Notes under the pieces: generated by a model | Databases searched by the model: none | Told to the model about the DNA's origin: nothing | Seen by the model: the letters and a program-made list of their open reading frames with translations, nothing else | Shown: piece after piece, positions 7,577 to 34,412 of the stretch | How positions within the stretch are numbered: the first letter of the stretch is position 1 | Layout of the letters: each line of letters starts with the position of its first letter | Translations under genes and position numbers: made by a program | Origin: Sphaerochaeta sp. | Lineage (GTDB): Bacteria > Spirochaetota > Spirochaetia > Sphaerochaetales > Sphaerochaetaceae | Direction: 5' to 3' | DNA: 34,412 bases | NCBI GenBank assembly: GCA_022482495.1 | Contig: JAKVPA010000012.1 | Location: forward strand, 1-34,412

Positions 7577-7577
7577 G

Positions 7578-9476: not shown

Positions 9477-9482
9477 TTTGCC

Positions 9483-10238
9483 ATGCCGAAACGGTGCGCC
9501 ATTCTGACCGATCTCACCTCCCTCGGGTCATGCTCCATGACGGTGATGACCAGTGCCCTGGAGTTGCTGGGAATCGAGGCGTGCCCGCTTCCCTCCGTCA
9601 TCGCATCCGTCCCTGCCCGTGGGTTTTCCGACCGGTTCTCCCACGACCAGACCGATGCGTTCACCGGGGTGCTGGAGCATTGGATCCGGATGGGCTTCCC
9701 TCTGGACGGGGTGATCTCTGGACGGTTGGCGTCCCTTCCCCAGGTGGAGGCGACGGCATCACTGCTGGACGCAAACCCCCAAGCCCTCTGCTTCTGCGAT
9801 CCTTCCGTAGGGGAAGGAGCGTGGAAGGACGAGGTGTGGAGTGCCGTGCTCCGGATGATCGCCCCACGCGCGTTCCTGTTTTCCCCCAGCGAGGAGGAGG
9901 CGCGGAAGATCCTCTCCCTGGATGGTTCGTCAGAATCTGCTTGGTGTGACCGGTTGCCCGGAATCCACCGGTTGGTCACCGGCATGCATGGGCCGGATGG
10001 ATGGGGTGTGGCGTTGGATGGGCAGATGCTTCCCACCCCTCGGTTTCCAGGGGCCGTTCCCGGAGCCGGGGATTTGTACGACGCGATCATCGCTGCTCTG
10101 GTGTTGCGGGGGGAAGATCTTTCTTCCGCCGTCAAAATGACGGGAACCCTGGTGTTCCTTGCCGTGGAGCGGACGGTGCAGGATCGGAAATGGGGCGTTG
10201 ACGTCACTTCGATCCGCAAGGAGCTGGCGGCGATATGA
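9483..10238 (+). CDS. pyridoxal kinase-like protein (ribokinase/PfkB superfamily)
   Basis: A 251-residue cytoplasmic kinase resembling PdxK/PdxY, which phosphorylate vitamin B6 vitamers at the 5' position. The N-terminus fits the family (ILTDLTSLGSCSMTVMTSALELLGIEACPLPSVI) and the anion-hole/catalytic motif of ribokinase-fold enzymes is GAGDLYDA near residue 196. The segment after it, where PdxK-type enzymes have a long C-terminal helix, is also present. The protein is slightly shorter than typical (about 280), so another small-molecule specificity is possible. ATG 9483 has no ribosome binding site but lies 7 nt after a good -10. The stop overlaps the next gene's ATG (ATGA), so the two form an operon. 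Confidence 0.85.
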   Translation: MPKRCAILTDLTSLGSCSMTVMTSALELLGIEACPLPSVIASVPARGFSDRFSHDQTDAFTGVLEHWIRMGFPLDGVISGRLASLPQVEATASLLDANPQALCFCDPSVGEGAWKDEVWSAVLRMIAPRAFLFSPSEEEARKILSLDGSSESAWCDRLPGIHRLVTGMHGPDGWGVALDGQMLPTPRFPGAVPGAGDLYDAIIAALVLRGEDLSSAVKMTGTLVFLAVERTVQDRKWGVDVTSIRKELAAI

Positions 10239-10834
10239 AACGGATTCTGGTGGTCGCAGCAAGCGCGATGGAACGGAACGGAGTGACCGATTTGCCGTCC
10301 TCGGTGGTGGGTGTCGGTAAGGTGCAGAGCGCCGTACGGACTTTGGAAGCGATCCAAACAAACAGTCCTGACCTGGTGGTCTGCGTCGGTTTCGCCGGTG
10401 CGCTCTCAGCGGATCTGAATATCGGGGATGTCGTGGTCGGCACTACCGTCTGTCAGTACGATATCGATCTAACTGCTTTCAAACTAAAGCGTTGTACGGT
10501 TCCGACCGGGGAAGGCATGCATTCGTTAGGAATCCTTTCTTTATGGGATGACCCACGTGTGGAAGGCAAACGGGGCCCCTTGGGTACCGCAGATCGTTTC
10601 GTCACCCCCGCGTACCGGAAGGACCATCCGTTTGTGACGGAGGAGCTGGGGGTCATCGCCTGTGATATGGAAAGTTATGCCGTCGCCTATGCGGCAAGCC
10701 GTCGGAACATCCCCTGCATGGTCGCCCGGGTGATCAGCGACGACTGGGAGGGGCGGCGGCCGAAGAACCTTCCCGCCTTTCTTCGCTCCTACCGGGAGAC
10801 CACCGGCCGCTTGCTGTCAGTTCTCGCCCAGTGA
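10235..10834 (+). CDS. MTA/SAH nucleosidase-like purine nucleosidase (PNP/UDP family)
   Basis: A 199-residue protein of the nucleoside phosphorylase/nucleosidase family. Visible features are the GVGKVQSA loop (26-33), VCVGFAGALSADLNIGDVVV (49-68), the ribose-binding CDMESYAVAYAA segment with E146, and the catalytic-acid region VISDD (D169). The pattern is closest to MTA/SAH nucleosidases, which cleave adenine from methylthioadenosine and S-adenosylhomocysteine. Related enzymes (futalosine hydrolase, hopanoid nucleosidase) share it, and this protein is shorter than most, so the substrate is uncertain. It starts inside the stop of the PdxK-like kinase. Its 3' end overlaps that of the convergent 131-residue protein by 18 bp. 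Confidence 0.8.
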   Translation: MKRILVVAASAMERNGVTDLPSSVVGVGKVQSAVRTLEAIQTNSPDLVVCVGFAGALSADLNIGDVVVGTTVCQYDIDLTAFKLKRCTVPTGEGMHSLGILSLWDDPRVEGKRGPLGTADRFVTPAYRKDHPFVTEELGVIACDMESYAVAYAASRRNIPCMVARVISDDWEGRRPKNLPAFLRSYRETTGRLLSVLAQ

Positions 10835-14926: not shown

Positions 14927-15982
14927 ATGAGGAACTTTGACGATAGCCAGCTCAGGAAACGTACATGGGACAACGGGATCATTTCCTTTTTGGTCGCCAT
15001 CCATGAACAGAAAGGAAGGCAGGAGCTGTACATCAGGCAGAAACCTGTTGAACTGGAGCGTCTGGTTGAGATAGCAAAAATCCAAAGTACGGAAAGCTCG
15101 AACAAGATCGAAGGGATCGGAACTTCCAACGCCCGGATGCGGCAACTTGTCGCGGAAAAGACTACACCCCGAACCCGTGACGAGGAGGAAATAGCCGGCT
15201 ATCGGGATGCGTTGAAGATGATCCATGACAGCTATGCCCACATGCCGGTATCTTCGAATATCATTCTGCAATTGCACCAGATCCTTTTGTCGTATACCAG
15301 CAAATCGTATGGTGGCAAGTTCAAGAACATACAGAATTATATCAGCGAGACACTTCCTGATGGTTCGGAAGCAACGAGGTTTACGCCGCTTGCGCCGTTT
15401 GAGACACCGGATGCGATAGCCGCAATCTGTACAAGTTACCAACAGGCGATCGAGCAGCAATTTGTGGATCCGCTCATTTTGATTCCCATTTTCATTTGCG
15501 ATTTTCTCTGTATCCATCCCTTCATTGATGGCAATGGGCGCATGAGCCGTCTGCTCACGACGTTACTGCTCTATCAAAATGGATTCATGGTAGGGAAATA
15601 TATCAGCCTGGAAAAAAAGATCGAGCTTACCAAGGAAAGCTATTACGAAGTACTGGGACAAATATCCGCGGGTTGGCGTGAGGGGAAGAATGATGATACA
15701 CCTTTCATCACGTATTTCCTTGGAATTGTCCTGAACAGCTATCGTGACTTCGAAGACAGACTTGGATCGGTAGACCGGAAAAGTACTGCGTATGCTATTG
15801 TCCGAAAAGCGGTCAGCGAGAAGGTAGGATTGTTCAGGAAAGCCGAGATCCTGGAATCATGCCCCCGTATCATGAGTTCTTCGGTGGAAGCTGCACTGAA
15901 GAAGCTCAAAGACGAAGGATATGTCCTCGTACAGGGGAAAGGGAAGAACACGCGGTACATGCGGAATCCTGACCATCAATAA
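14927..15982 (+). CDS. Fic-domain protein (class II, probable AMPylase) with C-terminal winged helix
   Basis: A 351-residue Fic enzyme. The active-site motif HPFIDGNGRMSR (197-208) is complete, so it should transfer AMP or another nucleotide moiety to a protein hydroxyl. An N-terminal inhibitory helix with S58-xxx-E62-G63 (SSNKIEG) marks it as class II, in which the Glu blocks the ATP site. Residues about 285-345 (STAYAIVRKAVSEK, ILESCPRIMSSSVEAALKKLKDEGYV, GKNTRYMR) look like a winged helix, so it may bind DNA and regulate itself. GGGAG precedes ATG 14927; ATG 14906 is an in-frame alternative. The gene is visibly richer in A+T than its neighbours and is enclosed by copies of the same repeat module, which suggests acquisition as a cassette. 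Targets are unknown. Confidence 0.93.
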   Translation: MRNFDDSQLRKRTWDNGIISFLVAIHEQKGRQELYIRQKPVELERLVEIAKIQSTESSNKIEGIGTSNARMRQLVAEKTTPRTRDEEEIAGYRDALKMIHDSYAHMPVSSNIILQLHQILLSYTSKSYGGKFKNIQNYISETLPDGSEATRFTPLAPFETPDAIAAICTSYQQAIEQQFVDPLILIPIFICDFLCIHPFIDGNGRMSRLLTTLLLYQNGFMVGKYISLEKKIELTKESYYEVLGQISAGWREGKNDDTPFITYFLGIVLNSYRDFEDRLGSVDRKSTAYAIVRKAVSEKVGLFRKAEILESCPRIMSSSVEAALKKLKDEGYVLVQGKGKNTRYMRNPDHQ

Positions 15983-16030
15983 TCTCCCAATTCATAGGTA
16001 TTTTGGGAGAATCCGTCTTGTCTTGGGAGA
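15983..16030. repeat. downstream copy of the fic-flanking triple half-site module
   Basis: Starting directly after the fic stop codon: TCTCCCAA (15983-15990), TTGGGAGA (16003-16010) and TTGGGAGA (16023-16030), each step exactly 20 bp. Order and orientation are the same as in the upstream module (one CTCCCA, then two TGGGAG). The likeness extends beyond the core: TCTCCCAA(A/T)TCAT and TGGGAGAAT occur in both copies. The pair therefore forms imperfect direct repeats of about 50 bp around the gene. This copy also lies upstream of the GH3 gene and might act on its promoter. Confidence 0.7.
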
Positions 16031-16169
16031 AACCAATTCGGAAAGGTATGGGTTTCCTTTGTTCATGGCAGGCTCCACGAGGATGAGGAATGGGCTTCGG
16101 TTTTCGGGGGCATGCGAGAAAATCCATGGCCAGAATCCCTTCCGGTGGTGTACACTGCTGGGAGGGAGG

Positions 16170-18370
16170 ATGCGTATGCGGCTGGACGTGGAGAAAATGC
16201 TTGGGGAGCTGACGGTTGAGGAAAAGGCGGGGTTGTGTTCCGGAGCGGATACCTGGTTCACCAAGGCGGTGGAGCGGTTGGGTATTCCAGCGGTGATGGT
16301 TAGTGACGGTCCCCATGGACTGAGGACGCAGAAAGAGAAGCGGGATGGGCAGTACGTGGGGAGCGTGGAGGCGATCTGCTTCCCCTCCGGTGCCGCGTTG
16401 GCCTCCAGTTTCGATCGTTCCGTCACGGAACGTGTCGGTGATGATCTTGGCCAAGAGGCTTCCTCCGAAGGCGTGCATACCGTACTGGGACCTGCCATCA
16501 ACATCAAGCGCAGTCCCCTCTGCGGCAGGAACTTCGAGTATCTTTCCGAAGACCCGTATCTTGCCGGTGAGTTGGCGTCTTCCTACGTGCAGGGTGTACA
16601 GAAACACCAGGTCGGTGTCAGCGTGAAACACTTTGCCGGCAACAACCAGGAAACACGGCGGATGAGCATCAGCGACGTTGTGGATGAACGGACGCTCCGT
16701 GAGATCTATCTTTCCGCATTCGAGAAGGTGGTCCGCACGGCGAAGCCCTGGACGCTGATGTGTTCGTACAACCGGATCAACGGAACGTACAGTTCGGAGA
16801 ATTCCTGGTTGCTTACCGACGTACTGCGGAAAGAATGGGGCTTTGACGGAATCGTCATGTCCGATTGGGGAGCGGTGGATGATCGTGTCGAATCTTTGAA
16901 GGCCGGCCTTGAGCTGGAGATGCCATCCAGTCGTGGCGTGACGGACAAGGAAATCGTCCAGGCGGTTTCGGAAGGAAAGCTTCCCATGTCGGTGCTGGAT
17001 GAAGCGGTACGGCGTCTTTTGGTGTGGATCGACAAGGGCTTGCAGCGCAGGACGGAATCGTATGACAAGGACGAACATCACCAGGACGCCCGGGAGATCG
17101 CCGCATCCTGCGCTGTGTTGCTCCAGAACGAGCACCATGCCCTGCCGTTGACGGGTGACCGTGGGGTGCTGTTCGTCGGGCCGTTTGCCCGCACCCCCCG
17201 TTATCAGGGTGGAGGATCCAGCCATATCAACAGCCACCTGGTGACCGGGGCGATGGATGTCTGTCCCGACGGAGTGCGGTATCTGCCCGGTATCCAGGAT
17301 AACGGACAGAAGCGCAGTCCCAAACGGCTGAAGGAAGCGGTGGAGGCAGCGGCCAAGGCACGGGCTGTGGTGATCTTCGCCGGTCTTCCCGAATCGATGG
17401 AGTCGGAAGGGTACGACCGCAGCTCACTGGATCTTCCTGACTGTCAGAACGAGTTGATCGACCGTATCGCCACCGTGCAGAAGCGCACCATCGTGGTTCT
17501 GTACAACGGAAGTCCCGTAACAATGCCCTGGAAAGGCAAGGTGGCTGCGATTCTTGAGATGTATCTGGGCGGAGAGGCTGTCGGTGAAGCGACTGTCGAT
17601 CTTCTCTTTGGCTTGGAGAATCCGTCGGGAAGTTGGCGGAGACGTTCCCCCTCCGGCTTGAGGACACCCCTTCGTTCCTGTCGTTCCCCGGCGGTCATCT
17701 GGAGGTGGCCTACCAGGAAGGGGTGTTCGTCGGATACCGCTGGTATGACGCCCGCAAGATGGAGGTCCTGTTCCCGTTTGGTCATGGTTTATCCTACACC
17801 TCGTTCGCCTATCATGACCTTGAGGTGGAAAAGGAGGGGGATGGCGCGGTGGTTCGCCTCCGGGTGAAGAATACCGGCAGGCGCCAAGGTTCCGAAGTGG
17901 TGCAGGTGTACGTTGCTCCTCCCGCCTCCCTGGTGCCTCGTCCGGTGAAGGAGCTGAAAGGGTTCTCCAAGGTGGAGCTCAAACCAGGCGAGGAGAAAGA
18001 GGTGAGCATTTCGTTGGATTTTCGCGCGTTCGCCTATTGGGATGGAAAATGGCGCGTCACCAAGGGCGCCTACCGGATTCTGGTTGGATCGTCCAGCAGG
18101 GACATCCGCCTTTGTTCCGATCTTTCCCTTGACGGTGATGGACCCGTTTCGTTGGTGGTCGGTCGGACCACGACGGTGCGTGATGTGTTGGAAAGCGATG
18201 AGGCGGTACCTGCGTTCCGTGGCATGATGGAGCAGGTGCTCAAGATGGTCGGGAACGAACCAATGTTCCGCGAGACGTTGCTGGGTTCTCCGTTGCACAG
18301 CCTGCAGAGTTTCCTCCCGGTCAGTTACCAACAGATTCTTGCCATGTTGGGAAGGAGCGGCGATGCGTGA
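16170..18370 (+). pseudogene. glycoside hydrolase family 3 beta-glycosidase, frameshifted
   Basis: A GH3 beta-glucosidase-type enzyme. The N-terminal barrel has the acid/substrate loop VMVSDGPHGLR, the conserved SVKHFAGNNQE (about 151-161) and the catalytic nucleophile Asp232 in GIVMSDWGAV. The C-terminal half has the second domain and the fibronectin-III-like end with FPFGHGLSYTSF. The frame breaks at 17630-17631: NPSG continues as KLAETFPLRLEDTPSF only if one A is added (GGGAA read as GGGAAA). Repaired, the protein has about 733 residues, normal for the family, and has no signal peptide. A one-base sequence error is as likely as a true mutation. ATG 16170 and ATG 16176 both follow a GGGAGGGAGG stretch. 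TACACT at 16151-16156 may be the -10. The gene overlaps the next by 8 bp. Confidence 0.88.
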
Positions 18371-23650: not shown

Positions 23651-23733
23651 ACGCGGGTAGAACGACAGACGAAACGGAAAGAACGATGGTGCAAGAAGCT
23701 AGGTATTCCTAACTGGCAAAAGGGAGGTGGATG

Positions 23734-24323
23734 ATGCGAAAGTTGTTGCAACATACCCGTCGCCCCAGGGATGGCGGGGACGTCTGATGCTTGGCATGAT
23801 GAATCGCGGGCACGCGCCGCTTTCCCGCTGGGGTCTTTCTCTGCTGTCCCCGGACAAGGACGCCCATGTTCTTGATGTGGGCTGTGGGGGTGGGGCGAAC
23901 ATCGCCCGTCTTCTCAGACGCTGTCCGGACGGGGGTGGTGGATGGCTTGGATGCGTCAGCGGAGAGCGTGGCGTACAGCAAAAAGAAGAACCGGCGGGCG
24001 TTGGACCGTTGCAGCATCATCCAGGGTGACATCCGTGCATTACCGTATGGGAATGCCACGTATGATCTGGTGACGGCGTTCGAAACCGTGTACTTCTGGC
24101 CTGATCTTGAAAAGGGATTCAGGGAAATCTTCCGGGTTCTCAAACCGGGTGGGCAGGCTCTGGTGGTCTGCGAAATGGATGATGCCTCAAACACCTACTG
24201 GCCCGGTTTGATCGTTGGGTTGGTGATTCATCGGGGAGAGGAACTCCAGCGGTTGCTGGAGCAGGCGGGATTCGGCACCGCTTGGGATGGATTGCCGTCA
24301 TCGGAACGAAAGGGACGGTGTGA
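23734..24323 (+). pseudogene. class I SAM-dependent methyltransferase, multiply disrupted
   Basis: Remains of a UbiE-like methyltransferase spread over three frames. GGGAGG precedes ATG 23734 (MRKLLQHTRRP). A missing C in the run 23763-23766 separates this from PQGWRGRLMLGMMNRGHAPLSRWGL and the SAM-binding motif VLDVGCGGGANIARLL. An extra G in the run 23931-23935 then separates RRCPDG from VVDGLDASAESVAY, DIRALPYGNATYDLVTAFETVYFWPD and RVLKPGGQALVV. Near 24275-24290 the frame changes again and the expected C-terminus (GWIAVIGTKGTV, stop 24321-24323) follows AGF much too soon, which suggests a deletion of a few tens of bases. Three lesions, one not a homopolymer change, argue for real decay. 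Confidence 0.8.
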
Positions 24324-24375
24324 TGCGGGTCTTGGGGTATGGCACCGGCGTCATCGGGGTGCTACAGGGGTGAAA

Positions 24376-25383
24376 TCAGATGCCGGGAGCGGAAGCGCGG
24401 GGGATGATCTCCGTTTCCAGATACACTTTGCGTGCCACGTGCCGTTCTTTCAATCGTTCTTCGAGCAGATGAAACGCCTGGGTGGCGAACGCCTGTTTGT
24501 CGATGTTGATGCTGGACAATGGCGGGGTGCAGGCTTGGGCGAGGTCAGTATTGTCGATGCTGATGATCGCAACCTGTTCCGGTATCTGGATGTTCATGCT
24601 TTTCAGTTTTTCAATGAAGTAGTAGGCGGCGCGGTCACAGTGGCAGATGAAGGCCTGGGGCATTTCCTCGGGCAGGGAAATGTCCAGGATGTAGTTGTCC
24701 ATCTTGGGATCGTAGTTGTTGATGATCCAATCGTCCTGGAACGGTAATCCTTCCCGACGGACGATCTTCAGATAGCCGTTGATCCGGTCGGCGATGTTGG
24801 AGGATTGTTGGTATGAGCCGACGAATCCGATTTTCCGGTATCCTTTCCGTACCAGATATTCGGCCGCTACCGCTCCCACCATGTAGTTGTCGATGACGAC
24901 ACAGTCAACCGCCTCGTCGGTGACGTAGTAGTCGATGACGACGACGGGAATTCCCGTCCGTGCCACGGCGTCCATCGCCGGTTTTGCGATTTCTCCTCCG
25001 ATGAAGATGCCATCCGCGCCGACCAGTTCGGTGGGAAGGGTACCGGAACTTTCCTGGTCTTTCTCCAGGATCAATACCTGCAGGTCCGTGTCATGGGCGT
25101 GGCATAATGTGGCAAGATCGTAGTAGATAACGTGATAGAAAGAATCAGTGGCGAGGAAGAATCGTTTGGGTGTGATGAATACGAATCTTCTGCGCCGTGC
25201 CGGGGTTCTGAGGCGTTGTTGTTCGTATCCGAGCTCTTCGGCCACATCACACACGTGTTTGCGCAGTGTGTCCCCTACACCGGGCTGTCCCTTCAGCGCC
25301 CGGGATACGGTGATCTTGCTGATGCCAAGTTGTTGGGCGATTTCGGCCAGCGTCGTCTTTTTGTCTGCCATAGGTTCATTCAT
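24376..25383 (-). CDS. LacI-family transcriptional regulator
   Basis: A 335-residue repressor-type regulator. The N-terminal LacI helix-turn-helix and hinge helix are clear (TTLAEIAQQLGISKITVSRAL, then VAEELGYE), followed by a periplasmic-binding-protein-like sensor domain (VGADGIFIGGEI, GIPVVVIDYYV, GYRKIGFVGSY, VAIISIDNTDLAQACTPPLSSI). It is divergent from the sugar operon at 25642-30744, and the gap between them carries several AACGTT-type sites, so it probably represses that operon and itself until a sugar binds. ATG 25383 has no evident Shine-Dalgarno; ATG 25371 is an in-frame alternative. The inducer is unknown; a mannose-containing oligosaccharide is suggested by the GH130 gene. Confidence 0.94.
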   Translation of the reverse strand: MNEPMADKKTTLAEIAQQLGISKITVSRALKGQPGVGDTLRKHVCDVAEELGYEQQRLRTPARRRRFVFITPKRFFLATDSFYHVIYYDLATLCHAHDTDLQVLILEKDQESSGTLPTELVGADGIFIGGEIAKPAMDAVARTGIPVVVIDYYVTDEAVDCVVIDNYMVGAVAAEYLVRKGYRKIGFVGSYQQSSNIADRINGYLKIVRREGLPFQDDWIINNYDPKMDNYILDISLPEEMPQAFICHCDRAAYYFIEKLKSMNIQIPEQVAIISIDNTDLAQACTPPLSSINIDKQAFATQAFHLLEERLKERHVARKVYLETEIIPRASAPGI

Positions 25384-25410
25384 ACCATGTTTTTCAGGGA
25401 AAATCCATCA

Positions 25411-25445
25411 GGAACGTTGTTTTGTGAAGAAAGAACGTTACAGGG
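25411..25445. promoter_or_regulatory. two AACGTT operator-like sites next to the lacI-type gene
   Basis: GGAACGTTGTT (AACGTT at 25413-25418) and AGAACGTTACAGG (AACGTT at 25434-25439) lie 21 bp apart, two helical turns, just upstream of the LacI-family gene. AACGTT is a self-complementary core typical of LacI-family operators. The position fits autoregulation. Confidence 0.45.
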
Positions 25446-25543
25446 ATAGATTTGATAATTGTGAATAAACATTTTAATTTATGAATTATTATCTAATAGC
25501 TTTGTATGTGAATAGAAATAGAGTGGAAGCAGGTGTAAATATT

Positions 25544-25601
25544 ACGTTACATAAATAATATTGACATATAAGTAAAGTGCATTACAATCTAAATGTAACG
25601 T
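25544..25601 (+). promoter_or_regulatory. sugar-operon promoter flanked by inverted operator-like repeats
   Basis: A strong promoter, TTGACA (25561-25566) and TACAAT (25583-25588) with 16 bp between, lies in an AT-rich gap. ACGTTACAT (25544-25552) just before the -35 and its exact complement ATGTAACGT (25593-25601) just after the -10 bracket it. Transcription would start at about 25595, inside the second site. Together with the AACGTT sites at 25413 and 25434 this looks like control by the divergent LacI-family protein. Confidence 0.6.
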
Positions 25602-25605
25602 ATAT

Positions 25606-25627
25606 CCAACTGTCTGGAAACAGTTGG
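25606..25627 (+). promoter_or_regulatory. 5' UTR hairpin upstream of the binding-protein gene
   Basis: CCAACTGT (25606-25613), a CTGGAA loop and ACAGTTGG (25620-25627) form a perfect 8-bp stem. It lies 3 nt before the AGGAGG ribosome binding site (25631-25636). It may protect the 5' end of the transcript, which would suit a highly expressed binding protein. No T-run follows, so it is not a terminator. Confidence 0.5.
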
Positions 25628-25641
25628 CCAAGGAGGTATAT

Positions 25642-27021
25642 ATGAGGAAAGGTATGATTGCGCTGTGCGCCCTGTTGGCTGCGTCGGCGCTGGTGTTTGC
25701 ATCAGGAGCAAACGAGCAATCCAAGCCGTCGACGATAGATGTGACGTTCTGGACGGCTCCCAACCAAGGACAGTTCAACTTCTGGGACGCGAAGATCCAG
25801 GAGTTCAATGCCGCGGGTGTGCAGCTGGATGGCAAGACCATCAAGGTGACGGCGCAGATGATGCCGGAGACCCCTTCATCCGAAGCAGGAATCCAGAACG
25901 CGCTGGCGACCAACACCGCTCCGGTGGTTTCCGAGAACATCAACCGCGGGTTTGCCGCGACGCTTGCCCAATCCGGACGTGTCTACGACCTGCAGGATGA
26001 GCAGTTCTTCAAGGACATCATCGCCGCACGCCATATGGAAAACATCATTTCCGGTTGGCAGATTGATGGCAAGCAGTATGTGATCCCCATTTTCGCCAAT
26101 CCGATGGGATATCATTGGAACTCCAAGGCGCTTCGCGCGTTGGGCTTCTCCGACCGGGTACCCCAGACGCTGGATGACATCAAGTTGTTGGTGAAGAACT
26201 TCCGTGCGCTGAAGGATACCAAGATGAAGGAGATCGGGGTGACGCATACGTTCCAGCGCTCCCAGTTGCTCCGCCCGGATCTGTGGTGGGAACGCTGGTT
26301 TGACTTCGAGATGCAGTACGACGCGTTCTCCCAAGGCAAACCGATGGTGGTATCTGGCAAACTGGTGATGGATCCCTCCATCACAAAGGACGTCTTGGAA
26401 TTCATCGGACTGTTCGGGGATACGATGCAGACGGCTGAGGACAATACGGCGTTTGAGAAGGAAGTGGTTCCCGCCGTCTTCCAGATTTCCGCTCCGTGGG
26501 ATGTGCCCAAGTATGAGGCGGCCGGTAAGGTGTATGGGATTGATGGGGATTATGTGTTCGGACCCGCGATCGTCAAACAGCAGGGAGATGTCCCCTACAC
26601 GTTCGCTGATTCCAAAGGGTTGGTGTTCTACAAAGGCGGCAACGTGACGGAAGAGCAGCATCGCGCCGCGGTCACGTTCATCTCTTGGGTGTGGGGCAAG
26701 GAGAACAACGCCCAGACGGACCTTGACTGGTACAAGACGACCGGAATGCTCCCGGTACGCGGAGACACGATGGACAATCCCGTCCTTGCCCAGTACATCG
26801 GCCAGAAGCAGGTGTTGCAGGATGAGGCGGAGATGGTGAAGAACTCCATTCCGGCGATGGCGGATGCCCATATTTCCGAAATCCTCACCGCAATGGGAGA
26901 AGGCGGCCTTTCCCAATACGTTTCCGATTCCACCAAGAACACGTCGCTTGTTCCCCTGGATGCCACAACGTACGTACAGGGTATGATGGAAGCGATGAAA
27001 ACGGCGGGATCGCTGCAATGA
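25642..27021 (+). CDS. ABC sugar transporter substrate-binding protein
   Basis: A 459-residue family-1 periplasmic binding protein. The signal peptide (MRKGMIALCALLAASALVFASG) has no lipobox and ends in the spirochaete-like FASGA junction. The mature protein begins IDVTFWTAPNQGQFNFWDAKIQEFN, as in sugar-binding proteins, and has the typical GWQIDGKQYVIPIFANPMGYHWNSKAL stretch (cited in part). ATG 25642 follows AGGAGG by 5 nt. It is the first gene of an operon with two permeases, GH130 and DUF1861, so the ligand is probably an oligosaccharide later cleaved by the GH130 enzyme, perhaps a beta-mannoside. It is not closely similar in sequence to the binding protein at 564-1898. Confidence 0.93.
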   Translation: MRKGMIALCALLAASALVFASGANEQSKPSTIDVTFWTAPNQGQFNFWDAKIQEFNAAGVQLDGKTIKVTAQMMPETPSSEAGIQNALATNTAPVVSENINRGFAATLAQSGRVYDLQDEQFFKDIIAARHMENIISGWQIDGKQYVIPIFANPMGYHWNSKALRALGFSDRVPQTLDDIKLLVKNFRALKDTKMKEIGVTHTFQRSQLLRPDLWWERWFDFEMQYDAFSQGKPMVVSGKLVMDPSITKDVLEFIGLFGDTMQTAEDNTAFEKEVVPAVFQISAPWDVPKYEAAGKVYGIDGDYVFGPAIVKQQGDVPYTFADSKGLVFYKGGNVTEEQHRAAVTFISWVWGKENNAQTDLDWYKTTGMLPVRGDTMDNPVLAQYIGQKQVLQDEAEMVKNSIPAMADAHISEILTAMGEGGLSQYVSDSTKNTSLVPLDATTYVQGMMEAMKTAGSLQ

Positions 27022-27046
27022 TCGATTGGTCCCGGGAGGTTCCCGC

Positions 27047-27928
27047 ATGAAAACAGACAGACAGTCCAGCAGGACGGGATGGCTCTTTTCCGTTCCGTTT
27101 CTTCTCAATCTCTTCGTGCTGTTTGCCATACCGCTCGTCTGGGCGGTATGGTTGGCGGGAACTGACTGGAACCTGATGTCCCTTTCCTGGAATTGGGTGG
27201 GGCTTGCCAATCTCAAGACGGCGCTGCGTGACGCGAATGTGCACAAGGTGTTTGTCAACGGATTGAAGTACCTGGTGGCCATCGTGCCGTTGGTTTGTGT
27301 CATCGGCATGCTGGTCGCCGAGGTGCTGCATCATCTCCCATCCCAGGTAAAAGGGATCTTCTCCGTGATTTTCTTCATCCCGTATCTGACCAGTGGCGTC
27401 GCCACCAGTGTGTTTGTCCGCTATTTCCTGAGTTACAGTTCTTCGTTGAACGTCTGGCTCCGTACGCGGTTCGGACTGACGGTCCAATGGTTCACTAATC
27501 CTCATACCGCCTTCTGGGTGATCGTTTTCATCATCGTCTGGAAGGTGTCCGGCTATTACGCGTTGTTCCTGTTCTCCTCGTTGGAGTCGATCCCGCCTGA
27601 GATTGGAGAGGCTGCGGAGATTGATGGAGCCACAGGATTGAAACGGTTTTTCAAGGTGACACTTCCCATGATTGCTTCATCGATGCAGAGCGTCATCATG
27701 CTGGCGACCGGTCTGGTGTACAGCATCTTCAGCGAACCATATTTGCTCACCGGGGGAGGACCGCAGAAGGCGACGCTCTCCTGGCAGTTGCTCCTGTATA
27801 ACACGTCATTCGTCGGTTTCCGCTCCGGCTATGGTGCGATGATCGCCATTCTTCTGGGACTGTGTATTTTTGTGACGCTTCGGATTGTGGTTGGCGTGAC
27901 CAACCGGTTCGTTGATGTGGAGAGGTAA
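27047..27928 (+). CDS. ABC sugar transporter permease (MalF/UgpA type)
   Basis: A 293-residue inner-membrane permease with about six membrane segments. The first is WLFSVPFLLNLFVLFAIPLVWAVW (cited in part), and the ATPase-contacting EAA loop is IPPEIGEAAEIDGATGLKRFFKVTLP. GGGAGG lies 7 nt before ATG 27047, and the gene begins 25 bp after the binding-protein stop. It pairs with the next gene's product. No ATPase gene is in the operon, so a shared MsmK-like ATPase is expected elsewhere. Confidence 0.94.
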   Translation: MKTDRQSSRTGWLFSVPFLLNLFVLFAIPLVWAVWLAGTDWNLMSLSWNWVGLANLKTALRDANVHKVFVNGLKYLVAIVPLVCVIGMLVAEVLHHLPSQVKGIFSVIFFIPYLTSGVATSVFVRYFLSYSSSLNVWLRTRFGLTVQWFTNPHTAFWVIVFIIVWKVSGYYALFLFSSLESIPPEIGEAAEIDGATGLKRFFKVTLPMIASSMQSVIMLATGLVYSIFSEPYLLTGGGPQKATLSWQLLLYNTSFVGFRSGYGAMIAILLGLCIFVTLRIVVGVTNRFVDVER

Positions 27929-27930
27929 AG

Positions 27931-28755
27931 ATGGCACGAAAGAAAACAAAAACGAAATGGGTGGCGTTGGTCATTGCGCTTCTCTTGGCGTTTGTGGCGC
28001 TATTTCCCTACTACTACATGGTGATGCAGTCGCTGACTCCTTGGAAGCAGGTCGACGCATCCGTATTGCCTTCCGGGTTCACCATGGACAGTTATCGCTA
28101 TCTGATGACCAACGGTGGCAGTGGGAACCGGATGATGTGGTTGCGGGCCATGGCCAACTCCTTGCTTGTCAGCATCGTCTCCACCTGTTTTTCCGTGGCG
28201 ACCGGTCTTTTGACCGCCTACGCCATGACGAAGATCCGTTTTGCCGCTGCCCATGCGTTGTATGAGATCCTGTTGTTCCAGATGTTCTTCCCGACCATCA
28301 TCCTGTTGGTTCCGCAGTACATGTTGCTGAAACCATTGGTCAATACATATGCCGGAATGATCATCCCGTACATCGTTTCCCTGTGGGCCGTCCTGATGTA
28401 CTACAATTACTTCCGTACGCTTGCTTCCGACATGTTCGAGTCGGCCAGGATTGATGGAGCGAGCGAACTGCGCATCGCCTTTTCCATTGCGTTTCCTGTC
28501 TGTCGTTCCTTGTCCGTGATCGTCTTCCTTTCCGTATTCCTAGGGCGTTGGTCGGAACTGATGTGGGATATGCTGATGGCCCCGGATGTGAAGATGCAGA
28601 CGCTGAACGTGTTGATGACCACCCAGTTCAAGCCCATGGGCAACCTGCCCGGGCCGATGTATGCCGCTTCGGTGATTCTGACCACTCCTGTGGTTGTCTT
28701 GTTCCTGATCTTCTCCCGCAATTTCAAGGAGGGGATCGCCATGCAGTTTAAATAA
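27931..28755 (+). CDS. ABC sugar transporter permease (MalG/UgpE type)
   Basis: A 274-residue inner-membrane permease and the second half of the import channel. Membrane segments include LVIALLLAFVALFPYYYMVMQS and LYEILLFQMFFPTIILLVPQY. The EAA loop reads DMFESARIDGASELRIAFSIAFP, with Ser in place of the second Ala. The ATG lies 2 nt after the stop of the preceding permease, preceded by GGAGAGG. The next gene, GH130, begins 13 bp downstream. Confidence 0.94.
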   Translation: MARKKTKTKWVALVIALLLAFVALFPYYYMVMQSLTPWKQVDASVLPSGFTMDSYRYLMTNGGSGNRMMWLRAMANSLLVSIVSTCFSVATGLLTAYAMTKIRFAAAHALYEILLFQMFFPTIILLVPQYMLLKPLVNTYAGMIIPYIVSLWAVLMYYNYFRTLASDMFESARIDGASELRIAFSIAFPVCRSLSVIVFLSVFLGRWSELMWDMLMAPDVKMQTLNVLMTTQFKPMGNLPGPMYAASVILTTPVVVLFLIFSRNFKEGIAMQFK

Positions 28756-28768
28756 AAGAGGTCTGTCC

Positions 28769-29842
28769 ATGTGTGTGATGCGAATGAAGGAAAATCCCTT
28801 GCTTGTCTGTGCCGACGTGAAGCCGTCCCGCCCCGATTTTACCGTGGTCGGGGTGTTCAACTGCGGTGGGGTACGTACGGAAGAAGGGGTGACGTTGGTC
28901 TGCAGAGTCGCCGAGATGTGCTCTGACCGTGGGGATGGTGTCATCCGGATCCCCCATGTCGAAACGGGTGGTACAATTGGCGCAATGGAGTTCAACCGGA
29001 GCGACCCGCGCTATGATTTTACCGATCCACGGGCAATCGTGGAACGGGATGGAAGACGGGTGGCGGCCCTTTCCAGCATGTCCAGTTTGCGCAGGGCGTT
29101 TGCGCCGGATGGTGTCCATTTCGTCTGCGATGATACGCCGTTGTTCCCGTTGGATCCCCGAAGCGAGGAATGGGGTGCCGAGGATCCCAGGATCACACGG
29201 CTTGAGGATGGGCAGTACGCCATGACCTATTCGTCGGTGAGCCGTAACGGAGTGGGGGTGTCGCTTGCATTGAGTGACGATTTGGTCACCTGGAACCGCC
29301 AAGGGATGATCCTCCCGCCGGCAAACAAGGATACGGTGATTTTCCCCAAGAAGATTGATGGAACGTGGTGGATGCTTCACCGCCCGATCCTGGATGGTTT
29401 GGGCGCTTCGGACATCTGGATCGCCTCATCTTCCGACCTGGTCCACTGGGGTGGCCACCAACATCTTGCCGGATGCCGTACCGGACAGCCGTGGGAGATG
29501 CGGAAGATCGGGGCGGGGGCGCACCCGATGGAGGTGGATGCCGGTTGGCTGGTGCTGTACCACGGGGTGGATGAGAAGGAGCACTACCGGGTTGGGGCGT
29601 TGCTGTTGGATAAACAGGATCCGAGGAGCGTGTTGGCCCGTACTCCACAACCCATCTTCCAGCCGGAAGAACCCTATGAGCGCAATGGATTCTTCTCCAA
29701 CACCGTTTTTCCCTGCGCGGCATGGATTGAAGGTGACGAGGTGGTGACGTACTACGGCGGAGCAGACAGCTGTGTCTGTGGTGCCCGCCTGTCGCTTTCC
29801 GATATCATGGATTCGTTGGTGTATGGGAGGCGCGCGCTGTGA
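28769..29842 (+). CDS. glycoside hydrolase family 130 protein (probable beta-mannoside phosphorylase or mannosidase)
   Basis: A 357-residue five-bladed beta-propeller enzyme of family GH130. Family motifs are VFNCGGVR (29-36), the EDPRIT motif with the likely catalytic Asp (138-143), NKDTVIFPKKIDGTWWMLHRP (186-206, phosphate- and sugar-contacting in the family) and HPMEVDAGWLVLYHGVDEK. It has no signal peptide, so it acts in the cytoplasm on imported sugar. Most GH130 members phosphorolyse beta-mannosides to mannose-1-phosphate; some hydrolyse them, and which applies here cannot be decided by eye. It lies in an operon with sugar uptake genes and overlaps the following DUF1861 gene by 4 bp (GTGA), suggesting the two act together. 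Confidence 0.9.
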   Translation: MCVMRMKENPLLVCADVKPSRPDFTVVGVFNCGGVRTEEGVTLVCRVAEMCSDRGDGVIRIPHVETGGTIGAMEFNRSDPRYDFTDPRAIVERDGRRVAALSSMSSLRRAFAPDGVHFVCDDTPLFPLDPRSEEWGAEDPRITRLEDGQYAMTYSSVSRNGVGVSLALSDDLVTWNRQGMILPPANKDTVIFPKKIDGTWWMLHRPILDGLGASDIWIASSSDLVHWGGHQHLAGCRTGQPWEMRKIGAGAHPMEVDAGWLVLYHGVDEKEHYRVGALLLDKQDPRSVLARTPQPIFQPEEPYERNGFFSNTVFPCAAWIEGDEVVTYYGGADSCVCGARLSLSDIMDSLVYGRRAL

Positions 29843-30744
29843 CGTACCGCGTCGCTTCGTTGCTTTCCGCCCACCGTGCATCCTCGGAGATCTCCTCCAT
29901 CCAGAGGATGCACGTGCAGGGGCTGGATGGTGCGGATGCGTACAATCCCGCCCGTCCGTTGCTAATCGGGGGAAAATGTCTGTTGCCGGTCCGCGTGGAG
30001 CCTCGTTCGAGCGAAGATTCCCACGTTCGGTTTCTTGCCAGGCAAACGGATGGCAGTTGGAAGGTGGCGGATGATCTTCCTGCCTTCCGGTTGCAGGACC
30101 CGTTCTGGTGCCGGATCGGAGAAAAACTGGTGTTCGGTGGCGTCCATGTGGACTTCTCTCCGTCCGGAACGGTACTGGGATGGCGGACAGACTTTTTGAT
30201 TGGTCGGACGATCACCACGTTGAAGCTCTGGTTCTCCGGTCCGAAAGGAATGAAGGATATCCGGCTTTGCCCGTTGCCTGAGGGACGTGTGGCGGTGTTC
30301 TCCCGTCCGCAAGGCGCGGTGGGGGGCCGGGGGCAGATCGGGTTCACCGTCGCTCCCTCGTTGGATGCGGTTCCTGAGACGATTTCCCAGGCTCCGCTTC
30401 TTGGGCTGTTTGATCCGGATGAGTGGGGTGGCGTCAACCAGGCGGTGTTGCTGAAAGATGGGACGATCGGGGTGCTGGGGCATATCGCGTGCTTCTCTCC
30501 GGATGGAGCCCGGCACTACTATCCCATGGCTTTTACGTTGGCCCCCCGCAGTGCTTCCTTGGTCGTCGAACCTCGGATCCTCATCGAGCGGAGAGAGTTG
30601 CTTCCTGGACCTGCCAAGCGTCCGGATCTTGCGGATGTGTTGTTCCCCGGAGGGATGGAGAACGCAGGTTCCCGGATCCGGCTGTACCTTGGGGTAAGTG
30701 ATGTGGATATCCAGACGGCACTGGTGCCGGATCCTTTCGCCTGA
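29839..30744 (+). CDS. DUF1861 family protein (predicted beta-propeller, uncharacterised)
   Basis: A 301-residue protein recognised as DUF1861 by LKLWFSGPKGMKDIRL, GRVAVFSRPQG, GRGQIGFT, EWGGVNQAVLLKDGTIGVLGHIAC and GPAKRPDLADVLFPGG. The repeated strand pattern suggests a propeller fold like those of GH43 and GH130 enzymes. There is no signal peptide. The GTG start at 29839 overlaps the GH130 stop, so the two are translationally coupled, and it is the last gene of the LacI-controlled operon. A role in breaking down, or recognising, the same oligosaccharide is inferred from context; no activity can be assigned from sequence. Confidence 0.85.
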   Translation: MTYRVASLLSAHRASSEISSIQRMHVQGLDGADAYNPARPLLIGGKCLLPVRVEPRSSEDSHVRFLARQTDGSWKVADDLPAFRLQDPFWCRIGEKLVFGGVHVDFSPSGTVLGWRTDFLIGRTITTLKLWFSGPKGMKDIRLCPLPEGRVAVFSRPQGAVGGRGQIGFTVAPSLDAVPETISQAPLLGLFDPDEWGGVNQAVLLKDGTIGVLGHIACFSPDGARHYYPMAFTLAPRSASLVVEPRILIERRELLPGPAKRPDLADVLFPGGMENAGSRIRLYLGVSDVDIQTALVPDPFA

Positions 30745-30789
30745 CCTCTTCTTCACTCCTCTAGACATTCTTTGGGAGGTGGGGTATGC

Positions 30790-30817
30790 TTGGTGATAGC
30801 GCCTTTGTTCTTATAGT
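30790..30817 (+). promoter_or_regulatory. candidate prs promoter
   Basis: TTGGTG (30790-30795) and TATAGT (30812-30817) are separated by 16 bp in the 104-bp gap before the PRPP synthetase gene. The start site would be near 30824, upstream of GGAGA at 30834-30838. It implies that prs is transcribed apart from the sugar operon. No convincing terminator was seen between DUF1861 and this site. Confidence 0.4.
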
Positions 30818-30848
30818 GAACGTAAACCTCTACGGAGAAATAAGATAA

Positions 30849-32147
30849 ATGAGTATCATTAAGCCCCATAAACTTGGTGTCATCGCCGGCCCCGGCAGTG
30901 AGTATTTCACCGGAAAGGTGGTAAAGCACCTGCGCCGCTTGTATCTGGAGCGGTATGAGAAGCTTTCCGCCGCGCTGGCGCGCCGCCATGGCATGACGGA
31001 GGAGGAGATCCTCAAGACGGTCACCCTGATGGATGACCTGAACAGCAAGAGCATCCCCAAATCCAAGTGCCCGACGACATTCCAGGTTCCCGATTTTACC
31101 GTCAAGGTGAAGTACACCAAGTTCGCCAATGGGGAGGAGAAGGCGGAGATTCTGGATCCGGTCAGAGGACTGAGGGTCTACATCATCTACGATATGGCCA
31201 ACGAGGAACCGATCCAGGTGGCGGGGTGTGACCAACCGGTCAAGCTCTCCGTCAACGATCATCTGATGTTCCTGTTCACTACGGTCAATGCCGTGCAGTT
31301 GGCCGGCGCTGATTCCATCACGTTGGTGCTTCCCACCTATCCGTACGCCCGCCAGCACAAGAAGGCGTCACGCGAGGCGTTGACGGCCAGCATGTTCGGC
31401 CATATGTGCGAGATGCTCGGTGTGGAGCGGATCATCACGCTGGACATCCACAGCAGGGAGATCGAGAACAGTTTCACCCATCTGAAGCTGGAGAACCTCC
31501 ACGGTTCGTACCAGACGTTGATCGCCCTGCACAAGATCATCGATTTCAACGACCCCGACCTGGTGGTCGTCTCTCCGGATACCGGAGCCGTTTCCCGCAA
31601 CAAGTTCTACGCCCAGGCGTTGCATCGCCCATTGGCCATGCTGTACAAGGAGCGGGATTATTCCGTCGTCTCCACCAGCGCAAAGACGAGCAACATCAAG
31701 AGCATCAACCTGCTAGGGGATGTGCGTGGCAAGACGGTGCTGATGGCCGACGACATGATCGCCACCGGTGGCACGATGCTGCTGGCCATGCGCGAGCTGA
31801 AGAACCTTGGGGCGAAGAAGATCATCTGTATGATCAGCCTGCCGTTCTTCAACGCCGGCGCGGTGGATACGTTCGACCAGGCGTACAAGGAAGGGGTGTT
31901 CTACCGGATCATCGGGACCAACGCCGTCTACCATGGACACGACCTCCTGGACAAGGAGTGGTACGTGCAGGCGGACATCACCGAATTGTTCGCCCGGATC
32001 ATCAGCCGTCTGCACCATGGCCGGTCGATCAGTCCGTTGCTGGACAACCGTAAATTCATTCAGATTCTCATTGATAACAGCCAACAGGGAACCGCCCCGG
32101 CCGCTGATGAGGCAGCGAGCGCTACGAACCCGGATCACGCTGAGTGA
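30849..32147 (+). CDS. prs: ribose-phosphate pyrophosphokinase (PRPP synthetase) with N-terminal insertion
   Basis: A 432-residue cytoplasmic enzyme making PRPP from ribose-5-phosphate and ATP, for nucleotide, histidine and tryptophan synthesis. Motifs are FANGEEKAEILDPVRG (92-107), LVLPTYPYARQHKK, LDIHSREIENSF, VVVSPDTGAVSRNKFYA and the PRPP-binding loop VLMADDMIATGGTM. It is over 100 residues longer than the classical enzyme (about 315). Much of the excess is an insertion of about 55 residues between the N-terminal GPGSEYF and the FANGE motif, and there is a short acidic tail. GGAGA lies about 10 nt before ATG 30849. Confidence 0.93.
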   Translation: MSIIKPHKLGVIAGPGSEYFTGKVVKHLRRLYLERYEKLSAALARRHGMTEEEILKTVTLMDDLNSKSIPKSKCPTTFQVPDFTVKVKYTKFANGEEKAEILDPVRGLRVYIIYDMANEEPIQVAGCDQPVKLSVNDHLMFLFTTVNAVQLAGADSITLVLPTYPYARQHKKASREALTASMFGHMCEMLGVERIITLDIHSREIENSFTHLKLENLHGSYQTLIALHKIIDFNDPDLVVVSPDTGAVSRNKFYAQALHRPLAMLYKERDYSVVSTSAKTSNIKSINLLGDVRGKTVLMADDMIATGGTMLLAMRELKNLGAKKIICMISLPFFNAGAVDTFDQAYKEGVFYRIIGTNAVYHGHDLLDKEWYVQADITELFARIISRLHHGRSISPLLDNRKFIQILIDNSQQGTAPAADEAASATNPDHAE

Positions 32148-32163
32148 TCGGCATGATCCGGGT
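32128..32163. repeat. 10-bp inverted repeat spanning the prs stop codon
   Basis: ACCCGGATCA (32128-32137) and TGATCCGGGT (32154-32163) are perfectly complementary, with a 16-nt loop that contains the prs TGA (32145-32147). There is no following T-run, so it is not a standard intrinsic terminator. It could be a 3' stabilising hairpin. Confidence 0.45.
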
Positions 32164-32241
32164 CATTCCACTTCATGGACCACGTCGTTGACGTACGGCC
32201 CATGATGCTTTTTCCTATGCGGATTTCAGGAGTGTAGCGTT

Positions 32242-33411
32242 ATGCAAATGTCTCGTCGTATTACTGGTTTCCAATGTTCCCCCATCAGAAGGTTGTCCCC
32301 ATATGCCAGGCTGGCCGAGCTGGAGGGAAAGCACGTCTATCATTTGAATATCGGACAGCCCGATATCAAGACCCCGCCCCAGGTGCTGGACGCCATCCAC
32401 GGCTACAGCGAACAGACCATCGCCTATGGCGCCAGTGAAGGGTTGGAGGCGTTGCGGGAGGGACTTCCCAAGTATTACGCCAAATACGGCCTTTCCGTGG
32501 AGCCGGATGATATTTTGATCACCACCGGTGGTTCGGAAGCCATCCAGTTCGCCTTCATGACGCTGTGTGATCCGTACGACGAGGTGATCATCCCCGAGCC
32601 GTACTACACCAACGTCGATTCGTTCGCCAAGGTCGCCATGGTCAACCTGGTGCCGGTGACCAGCAAGTTTGAGGACGGGTTCGCCCTGCCTCCGATCAGC
32701 GAGTTCGCCAAGAAGATCACCCGCAAGACAGGGGCGATTCTGCTTTGCTCCCCCAACAACCCCACCGGGCACGTGTATACCAGGAATGAGTTGCTGGCGT
32801 TGCTCAAGCTGGTCAAGGAGCACGACATCTTCCTGATCGTCGATGAGGTGTACCGGGAGTTCTGTTACGATGGCAAACAGTTCACCTCGATCCTCAGCTT
32901 CCCGGAGTATGCCGACCGGGTGATCTGCATCGACAGTTTCTCCAAGCGCTACAGCATGTGCGGTTCCCGGATCGGAGCATTGGTTTCCAAGAACCGTGAG
33001 GTGCTGGAGTCTGCGTTGAAGCTTTCCCAGGCGCGGCTTTGCCCGCCGGATATCGAGCAGGTCGCAGCCTTGGCCGCGTTGGATACGGATGATTCCTACA
33101 TCGCCGAGGTACGTGCCGAATATCAGCTTCGCCGGGATATTCTGGTAGAGGGGTTGAACAAGATCGAGAACGTCAAGTGCCAGTGTCCCAAAGGCGCGTT
33201 CTACCTGGTCGCCGAACTTCCGGTGGACGACGCGGAGAAGTTCTCCATCTTCATGCTGAAGGATTTCTCGTTGGATGGGGAGACGGTGATGCTTGCTCCG
33301 TGCGAGGATTTCTACGTGACCAAGGGGATCGGTCGCAGGCAGGTGCGCCTTGCCTATGTGATCAACCCGGAGGCGCTCGTCATTCCCTCAGATGTCTGGA
33401 TGCTGGGTTGA
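32242..33411 (+). CDS. PLP-dependent aminotransferase, class I/II (aspartate aminotransferase-like)
   Basis: A 389-residue fold-type I aminotransferase. Motifs are LNIGQPDIKTP near the N-terminus, TTGGSEAI for the PLP phosphate, SPNNPTGHVYT, VDEVYREFCYDG and the PLP-binding Lys235 in DSFSKRYSMCGSRIG. The arginine that binds the substrate carboxylate is probably in RQVRLAYV near the end. Length is normal. The amino acid substrate cannot be fixed; aspartate, aromatic amino acids and alanine are all possible in this group. AGGAG lies 10 nt before ATG 32242. The EamA transporter gene follows after 34 bp. Confidence 0.92.
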   Translation: MQMSRRITGFQCSPIRRLSPYARLAELEGKHVYHLNIGQPDIKTPPQVLDAIHGYSEQTIAYGASEGLEALREGLPKYYAKYGLSVEPDDILITTGGSEAIQFAFMTLCDPYDEVIIPEPYYTNVDSFAKVAMVNLVPVTSKFEDGFALPPISEFAKKITRKTGAILLCSPNNPTGHVYTRNELLALLKLVKEHDIFLIVDEVYREFCYDGKQFTSILSFPEYADRVICIDSFSKRYSMCGSRIGALVSKNREVLESALKLSQARLCPPDIEQVAALAALDTDDSYIAEVRAEYQLRRDILVEGLNKIENVKCQCPKGAFYLVAELPVDDAEKFSIFMLKDFSLDGETVMLAPCEDFYVTKGIGRRQVRLAYVINPEALVIPSDVWMLG

Positions 33412-33445
33412 AAGCATACCGCAAGAACGTGATGAAGGTTGACGC

Positions 33446-34367
33446 ATGATCGAAGGTCCCCGGGACATGAAGGCGGCAGGGCACCTTTCCGCCCTGTTCA
33501 CCGTCTTCGTGTGGGGGGTGACGTTCGTTTCTTCGAAGGTGCTTCTTGATATCCTCACTCCGGAACAGCTGTTGTTCGGCCGGATGTTCGTCGGATACCT
33601 GGCCCTTGTGGGTCGTCCAGCCGCATCGGATGCGGCTGAAGGATTCCAAGGACATCTGGCTGTTCATCGGAGCGGGATCGCTCGGGGTGTTCCTGTACTA
33701 TTTTCTGGAAAACACCGCGTTGACGTTCAGCTACGCAAGCAACGTCGGGGTGATCGTCAGCATCGCGCCGGTATTCACCGTGCTCTGTTGTTCCGTGGCG
33801 TTCCACCAACCGTTGAAGAAGCAGTACTTCATCGGATTCGTCGTGGCAATCGCCGGCATCGCGTTGATCTCATTCAACGAATCCACCAATCTGAAGCTCA
33901 ACCCCCTGGGGGATATCCTTGCCCTTGGCGCCGCCGCGACGTGGGGCGGCTATTCCGTCTTCGCCCGGAAGATCACGGAGAAGGGATACGCCGTCATCCC
34001 TGCCACCCGCCTGATGTTCCTTCCCGGCCTGGTGTTGATTCTTCTGGCCAATTTGATCCATCCCGCGCCCCTGCAGACGGCCCAGCTGTTCAGCTGGCCG
34101 TACCTGAAGCACCTGCTGTTTCTGGGTGTGGTGGCCTCCGGCATGTGCTTCGTCACCTGGAACTATTCCCTTCTGGCGTTGGGGGCGATTACGGGATCGT
34201 TCTATATTTACCTCTGTCCGGTGATCACCATGGTATGCTCGGCCATCTGGCTTGGTGAGGTGATCACCCCGCTGGCCATCTGGGGTACCGTCCTGACGTT
34301 GTTGGGGCTGGCGGTCAGCGAGGTGAGGTTGCCATTCCGTAAGCGGACAGTACACACCGCATCTTGA
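33446..34367 (+). pseudogene. EamA/DMT-family transporter, frameshifted
   Basis: A drug/metabolite transporter of the EamA family, with ten membrane segments expected. The first frame gives HLSALFTVFVWGVTFVSSKVLL and LLFGRMFVGYLAL; a second frame continues WVVQPHRMRLKDSKDIWLFIGAGSLGVFLYYFLENTAL (cited in part) to the end at 34367. The break is at TT 33606-33607 (GCCCTTGTGGG); one T fewer restores a protein of about 306 residues, normal for the family. As everything else is conserved, a sequence error is at least as likely as mutation. AAGG precedes ATG 33446; ATG 33467 is an alternative. Members often export amino acids or metabolites, and the preceding aminotransferase may be functionally linked. 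Confidence 0.87.
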
Positions 34368-34412
34368 TCACCTTCATTAAAAATTGCGCCATGCCTATTT
34401 CGGTGGTAAACT

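What the first reader, a model, noticed from the sequence alone, without database searches (positions are those of the whole stretch)
24376..30744. LacI-controlled operon combining ABC uptake, GH130 and DUF1861
The order is binding protein, two permeases, GH130, DUF1861, with a divergent LacI-family gene. GH130 and DUF1861 overlap by 4 bp, so both are made together. DUF1861 has no assigned activity that I know of, and its likely propeller fold and coupling to GH130 make it a candidate new glycosidase, phosphorylase or carbohydrate-binding partner for the same imported sugar. With the phosphohexomutase at 7578-9413 a route from beta-mannoside to mannose-1-phosphate to mannose-6-phosphate is conceivable.
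Basis: partly seen in the sequence, partly recalled or inferred. Interest (0 to 1): 0.65.

Follow-up and report, generated by a model that had tools for sequence, protein, structure and literature searches.

The report
Beta-1,2-mannan uptake and phosphorolysis operon
This spirochaete operon most likely imports short chains of beta-1,2-linked mannose and splits them with phosphate using two related enzymes; the one listed as 'unknown function' (DUF1861) is a bacterial relative of the enzymes with which Leishmania parasites build and use up their mannose store.

Summary
In detail: divergent LacI gene, binding protein, two permeases, GH130 and DUF1861, with a 4-bp GTGA overlap. The statement that DUF1861 has no assigned activity is out of date. 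The window protein is a full-length homologue of the Leishmania MPT/MTP proteins (CAZy GT108, mannosyltransferase/phosphorylases of beta-1,2-mannan): phmmer E 3e-36; AlphaFold model pLDDT 96, Z 40.5 to the phosphate-bound phosphorylase MPT-4. It keeps the catalytic Asp (D87 = MPT-2 D94) and two Arg found in MPT-4 but not in the GDP-mannose transferases MPT-1/2. GH130 is nearest to Listeria Lin0857, a beta-1,2-mannobiose phosphorylase (Z 51.5, 39% identity), whose Listeria orthologue lies in the same cassette with DUF1861 and a phosphosugar mutase. The cassette recurs in other phyla, often with a conserved operator TGTAACGTTACA. In 398 Bacilli genomes, 31 of 40 with DUF1861 also carry a Lin0857-type GH130. 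Best reading: import of beta-1,2-oligomannan, then phosphorolysis to mannose-1-phosphate, GT108 trimming chains and GH130 splitting mannobiose. The window's phosphohexomutase is probably not the partner; a better candidate lies elsewhere in the genome. The apparent second copy is a contig overlap. New member of a known kind; bacterial GT108 seems untested at the bench.

The parts
24376..25383 (-). LacI-family repressor of the operon, divergently transcribed
   Evidence: Pfam LacI + Peripla_BP_3; divergent LacI at the same place in most relatives
25545..25600 (.). Two operator half-sites, CGTTACA at 25545-25551 and TGTAACG at 25594-25600, flanking the promoter; a third CGTTACA at 25436-25442 on the LacI side
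   Evidence: TGTAACGTTACA exact in 29 of 59 LacI/operon intergenic regions of relatives, none in shuffles; these three are the only such 7-mers in the window
25561..25588 (+). Promoter-like site TTGACA-16-TACAAT
   Evidence: 11 of 12; a consensus match only
25642..27021 (+). Extracellular solute-binding protein (signal-like N-terminus)
   Evidence: orthologues annotated as ABC substrate-binding protein
27047..27928 (+). Sugar ABC transporter permease 1 (UgpA/MalF type; open frame starts 27026)
   Evidence: Pfam BPD_transp_1, NCBIfam
27931..28755 (+). Sugar ABC transporter permease 2 (UgpE/MalG type)
   Evidence: Pfam BPD_transp_1, NCBIfam
28769..29842 (+). GH130, predicted beta-1,2-mannobiose phosphorylase
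   Evidence: phmmer E 1.2e-78 to Lin0857; model Z 51.5, 39% identity to 5b0p; NCBIfam BtaManbiosPhlase 369 bits, below its 550-bit cutoff
29839..30744 (+). DUF1861 = GT108-type five-bladed propeller, predicted beta-1,2-oligomannan phosphorylase
   Evidence: Pfam; phmmer to MPT-4/-1/-2; model and structure comparison; residue comparison

Best explanation
A LacI-repressed operon for scavenging beta-1,2-linked mannose oligomers. The binding protein and two permeases (with a shared ATPase encoded elsewhere) bring the oligomer into the cytoplasm. The DUF1861 protein, a bacterial GT108 enzyme, uses inorganic phosphate to take terminal mannose off the chain as alpha-mannose-1-phosphate (inverting). 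The GH130 enzyme does the same to the last disaccharide, beta-1,2-mannobiose. Mannose-1-phosphate goes by a phosphomannomutase and ManA to fructose-6-phosphate; the last free mannose is phosphorylated by a hexokinase. Shown here: gene content, homology, fold, conserved catalytic and phosphorylase-type residues, cross-phylum conservation of the pairing and of an operator. Inferred: substrate, direction, the split of labour by chain length, and the repressor's inducer.
For: DUF1861 is full-length homologous to Leishmania MPT-4/-1/-2; model pLDDT 96.3, Z 40.5 at 1.7 A over 292 residues to phosphate-bound MPT-4, then GH130s at about Z 26 with Lin0857 first. GT108 Leishmania enzymes act on beta-1,2-mannan (PMC8950772). 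D87 aligns with MPT-2 D94 (D94N entry titled inactive) and is Asp in 139 of 140 bacterial sequences; R156 is Arg in all 140 and in MPT-4 but His in MPT-1/2; R164 is Arg in window and MPT-4, Thr/Ser in MPT-1/2. GH130 is nearest to Lin0857; the near-identical Listeria orthologue sits beside DUF1861, the same transporter and a phosphosugar mutase. GH130 lies on the same strand in 58 of 65 loci close to the window type and in 25 of 52 loci drawn more widely. Where GH130 is not alongside, some DUF1861 genes sit by mannose-1-phosphate guanylyltransferase and GT4, or GH38 alpha-mannosidase: the shared theme is mannose. Precedent for two phosphorylases split by chain length: Teth514_1788/1789 (PMC4264767). 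ManA, a 573-aa mutase and CUT1-type ATPases exist in the genome.
Against: No bacterial GT108 enzyme was found characterised in the papers searched; the Leishmania members are only about 30% identical and lie in another clade. The window GH130 falls under NCBI's equivalog cutoff, and its second-closest structure is called a 'mannoside synthase' (Uhgb_MS). Many sister operons, though not this one, carry a GH13 gene (21 of 65), hinting at an alpha-glucoside in the substrate or a second sugar. No mutase or ManA lies in this operon. The R164 position is variable outside the window's clade.
Confidence: 0.72

Rival explanations
1. The DUF1861 protein is mainly synthetic: it uses GDP-mannose or mannose-1-phosphate to build beta-1,2-mannan as a store, like the Leishmania GDP-Man-dependent MPT-1/2, and GH130 takes the store apart.
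For: GT108 is a dual-activity family (PMC8950772); MPT-1 and MPT-2 are GDP-Man-dependent mannosyltransferases (titles); other bacterial DUF1861 genes lie beside mannose-1-phosphate guanylyltransferase and GT4 genes.
Against: The window gene is arranged in one operon with an importer under a LacI repressor, and carries the Arg residues of the phosphorylase MPT-4, not the His/Thr-Ser of MPT-1/2. No guanylyltransferase in the operon.
Confidence: 0.12
2. The real substrate is a mixed or differently linked beta-mannoside (for example one carrying an alpha-glucose or another aglycone); the two enzymes cut two different linkages or acceptors of it.
For: A GH13 gene stands in the operon in 21 of 65 related loci and a GH2 gene in 13 of 65, GH13 also in the other spirochaete operon; the binding protein's ligand is unknown.
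Against: The nearest assayed relatives of both enzymes act on beta-1,2-mannosides; the window operon has no GH13.
Confidence: 0.13
3. DUF1861 is a non-catalytic partner (sugar-binding or regulatory subunit) of GH130.
For: Tight genetic coupling with GH130, many 4-bp overlaps in either gene order.
Against: Catalytic Asp and the active-site motifs are almost invariant; DUF1861 stands without an adjacent GH130 in about half of widely sampled loci, so it can work alone.
Confidence: 0.03

Closest known systems
Leishmania MTP/MPT mannosyltransferase-phosphorylases, CAZy GT108 (PDB 6q50, 6q4w, 6q4x, 2b4w)
   Same: Full-length homology, same five-bladed propeller (Z about 40), catalytic Asp, and the MPT-4 (phosphorylase) Arg residues.
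   Different: About 30% identity, separate clade; bacterial one sits in an importer operon with GH130 and is not part of a known endogenous store.
Listeria innocua Lin0857 beta-1,2-mannobiose phosphorylase, GH130 (PDB 5b0p)
   Same: 39% identical over 352 residues, Z 51.5; its near-identical L. monocytogenes orthologue lies in the same cassette with DUF1861.
   Different: Listeria cassette has GH13 and a phosphosugar mutase and the order DUF1861-GH130; the window has neither gene and the opposite order.
Thermoanaerobacter Teth514_1788/1789 beta-1,2-mannoside phosphorylase pair (PMC4264767)
   Same: ABC importer with two phosphorylases of different chain-length preference giving mannose-1-phosphate.
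   Different: Both Teth514 enzymes are GH130; here the second enzyme is of family GT108. No guanylyltransferase or GT4 in this operon.

Membership tests
DUF1861 / CAZy GT108 | Whole-protein match to the family profile and to GT108 members of known structure | tested here: met
   PF08950 290 bits vs cutoff 28; phmmer E 2.6e-36 to 6q50
DUF1861 / CAZy GT108 | Five-bladed beta-propeller fold of GT108 | tested here: met
   model pLDDT 96.3, Z 40.5, 1.7 A over 292 residues to 6q50
DUF1861 / CAZy GT108 | Catalytic Asp (MPT-2 D94) | tested here: met
   D87, aligned
GT108, phosphorylase subtype (MPT-4-like) | Arg pair present in MPT-4 and absent from MPT-1/2 (a residue marker proposed here, not from the literature) | tested here: met
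   R156 and R164
DUF1861 / CAZy GT108 | Mannosyl transfer or phosphorolysis of beta-1,2-mannan | not testable with these tools
   needs an assay
GH130 | Glyco_hydro_130 domain and propeller | tested here: met
   PF04041 187 bits; model Z 51.5 to 5b0p
GH130 beta-1,2-mannobiose phosphorylase (NCBIfam NF050092 equivalog) | Score above the curated equivalog cutoff | tested here: not met
   369 bits against 550; so filed as GH130 of the Lin0857 type, not as that equivalog
GH130 beta-1,2-mannobiose phosphorylase | Activity on beta-1,2-mannobiose with phosphate | not testable with these tools
   needs an assay
LacI-controlled CUT1 sugar importer operon | Divergent LacI, binding protein, two permeases, operator at the promoter | tested here: met
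   ATPase elsewhere in the genome; repression itself not tested

The most novel reading that the evidence does not exclude
Bacterial GT108 is a broad, unassayed family with two jobs: degrading imported beta-1,2-oligomannan next to GH130 and importers, and, next to mannose-1-phosphate guanylyltransferase and GT4 genes, making or turning over a bacterial beta-1,2-mannan, i.e. a bacterial counterpart of Leishmania mannogen.
Probability: 0.15. Interest if true: 0.65.

Novelty: new member of a known kind. Interest (0 to 1): 0.4.

Why it matters
It gives a testable function to a family that Pfam still lists as unknown and that has hundreds of bacterial members (340 relatives in one scan), ties it to a named substrate class, mannose-1-phosphate chemistry and a predicted repressor site, and places the Leishmania mannogen enzymes inside a larger bacterial family.

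Tried and rejected
Two DUF1861 copies in the genome: rejected, they are the overlapping ends of two contigs (99.77% over 7.8 kb; one residue differs). Window mutase 7578-9413 as the operon's phosphomannomutase: rejected as the best candidate. Chance clustering of GH130 and DUF1861: rejected. The first neighbourhood tally (58 of 65) was biased towards close relatives, so a wider draw was made (25 of 52). Profile-profile comparison of DUF1861 with GH130 gave only a short weak alignment (E 0.0012, probability 20%): the kinship of the two families rests on fold, not on sequence. No terminator-like site was found after DUF1861. The primary Leishmania paper (10.1016/j.chom.2019.08.009) is not held; its content is taken from the review PMC8950772 and from PDB titles. 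Searches for literature on bacterial DUF1861 or Lin0857's neighbourhood found nothing further.

Full report
Observation. Pfam confirms LacI, two BPD_transp_1 permeases, Glyco_hydro_130 and DUF1861; the binding protein is below Pfam thresholds but its relatives are annotated as substrate-binding proteins. The overlap is GTGA at 29839-29842.

DUF1861 is not without assigned activity. A sequence search of the PDB with the window protein finds Leishmania MPT-4, MPT-1, MPT-2 and 2b4w at E 3e-36 to 1e-25, E 1e-74 with a five-sequence profile. These are CAZy GT108, described in a review as dual glycosyltransferase-phosphorylases of mannogen, a beta-1,2-mannan, with the same five-bladed propeller and mechanism as GH130 (PMC8950772). 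The AlphaFold model (pLDDT 96.3) superposes on 6q50, titled a mannose phosphorylase with phosphate, at Z 40.5 over 292 residues; next come MPT-2 and MPT-1 at about 39, then GH130 phosphorylases at about 26 with Listeria Lin0857 first.

Which GT108 activity? I aligned 140 bacterial sequences with MPT-4, MPT-1 and MPT-2. D87 matches D94 of MPT-2, whose D94N form is titled inactive, and is Asp in 139 of 140. R156 is Arg in all bacteria and in MPT-4 but His in both GDP-mannose transferases. R164 is Arg in the window and in MPT-4, Thr/Ser in the transferases, and conserved in the window's own group (84 of 86) but variable more widely. This favours phosphorylase over GDP-mannose transferase; it is an inference from residues, not a test.

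GH130. The nearest solved enzyme is Lin0857, a beta-1,2-mannobiose phosphorylase (39% identity, Z 51.5), followed by Uhgb_MS and the Teth514 beta-1,2 phosphorylases. It scores 369 bits on NCBI's mannobiose-phosphorylase equivalog model, below the 550-bit cutoff, so it is filed as Lin0857-type, not as that equivalog.

Neighbourhood. The same cassette is present in another spirochaete genome (with a GH13 gene and again a 4-bp overlap), in Listeria, Sphingomonas, Metabacillus, and in Bacteroidota and enterobacterial loci. The Listeria GH130 is nearly identical to Lin0857 itself, so the assayed member of this GH130 type comes from a cassette with DUF1861 and a phosphosugar mutase. Among 65 close relatives with at least 5 kb on both sides, GH130 is on the same strand in 58 and within 150 bp in 49; both gene orders occur, which argues for kept function rather than frozen order. 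In a wider draw from Bacilli and Clostridia it is near in 25 of 52. In the same 398 Bacilli genomes 31 of 40 with DUF1861 carry a Lin0857-type GH130, against 16 of 358 without (p 2e-26). In the remaining loci some DUF1861 genes lie beside a mannose-1-phosphate guanylyltransferase with GT4 genes, or a GH38 alpha-mannosidase: again mannose.

Regulation. The 12-mer TGTAACGTTACA is present exactly in 29 of 59 LacI/operon intergenic regions, never in shuffles, and only 3 times in 1.07 Mb of the rest of the loci. The window has three half-sites, at 25436, 25545 and 25594, the only three in its 34 kb, and the last two flank a TTGACA-16-TACAAT promoter. This fits a repressor on its own operon; the window's sites are imperfect copies of the consensus.

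Downstream metabolism. The mutase at 7578-9413 shows no similarity to the Listeria operon mutase; a different gene at contig C3:172891 does (38% over 555 columns). ManA and CUT1-type ATPases are present elsewhere; a hexokinase lies at 5802-7160.

Distribution and origin. Only 2 of 393 Spirochaetota genomes sampled have a full-length DUF1861, so the operon is patchy; the window sequence groups with Sphaerochaeta and Treponema MAG sequences (100/98), while the Leishmania proteins fall in a separate clade with Clostridia- and Bacilli-derived sequences (100/99). Transfer between lineages is likely but was not tested further.

Verdict. A beta-1,2-mannooligosaccharide uptake and phosphorolysis operon pairing a GT108 with a GH130 enzyme. 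The working model follows the Thermoanaerobacter pair of phosphorylases split by chain length (PMC4264767), with a GT108 in one role. The family and the chemistry are known; the bacterial GT108 member and its pairing seem not to have been assayed.

Noticed in passing
window 1-10752 and 26596-34412: The window is a whole contig whose two ends overlap the ends of contigs C5 (99.47%) and C8 (99.77%) of the same genome: redundant strain or assembly ends, so genes there appear twice in genome searches.
   Followed up: yes
window 33446-34367: An EamA-type transporter gene is split by a frameshift in the window but intact (306 aa) in the overlapping contig (L011 12228-13148); one search lists three indels between the two contigs in this stretch, suggesting residual assembly indels.
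   Followed up: partly
window 15921-18370, 1901-3583, 23727-24747: A GH3 glycosidase, an ABC permease and a SAM methyltransferase also appear split between reading frames, as expected from indel errors or decay.
   Followed up: no
L190, L191, L192, L198, L182, L183, L194: DUF1861 genes near GT4 and sugar-nucleotide transferase genes (mannose-1-phosphate guanylyltransferase type confirmed by Pfam in L190 and L198), plus an unnamed protein of about 370 aa without a Pfam match, instead of GH130: a second, possibly biosynthetic context.
   Followed up: partly
L012, L013, L016 and other relatives: A GH13 enzyme of the trehalose-6-phosphate hydrolase/oligo-1,6-glucosidase type stands in many sister operons but not in the window; its substrate is unclear.
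   Followed up: partly
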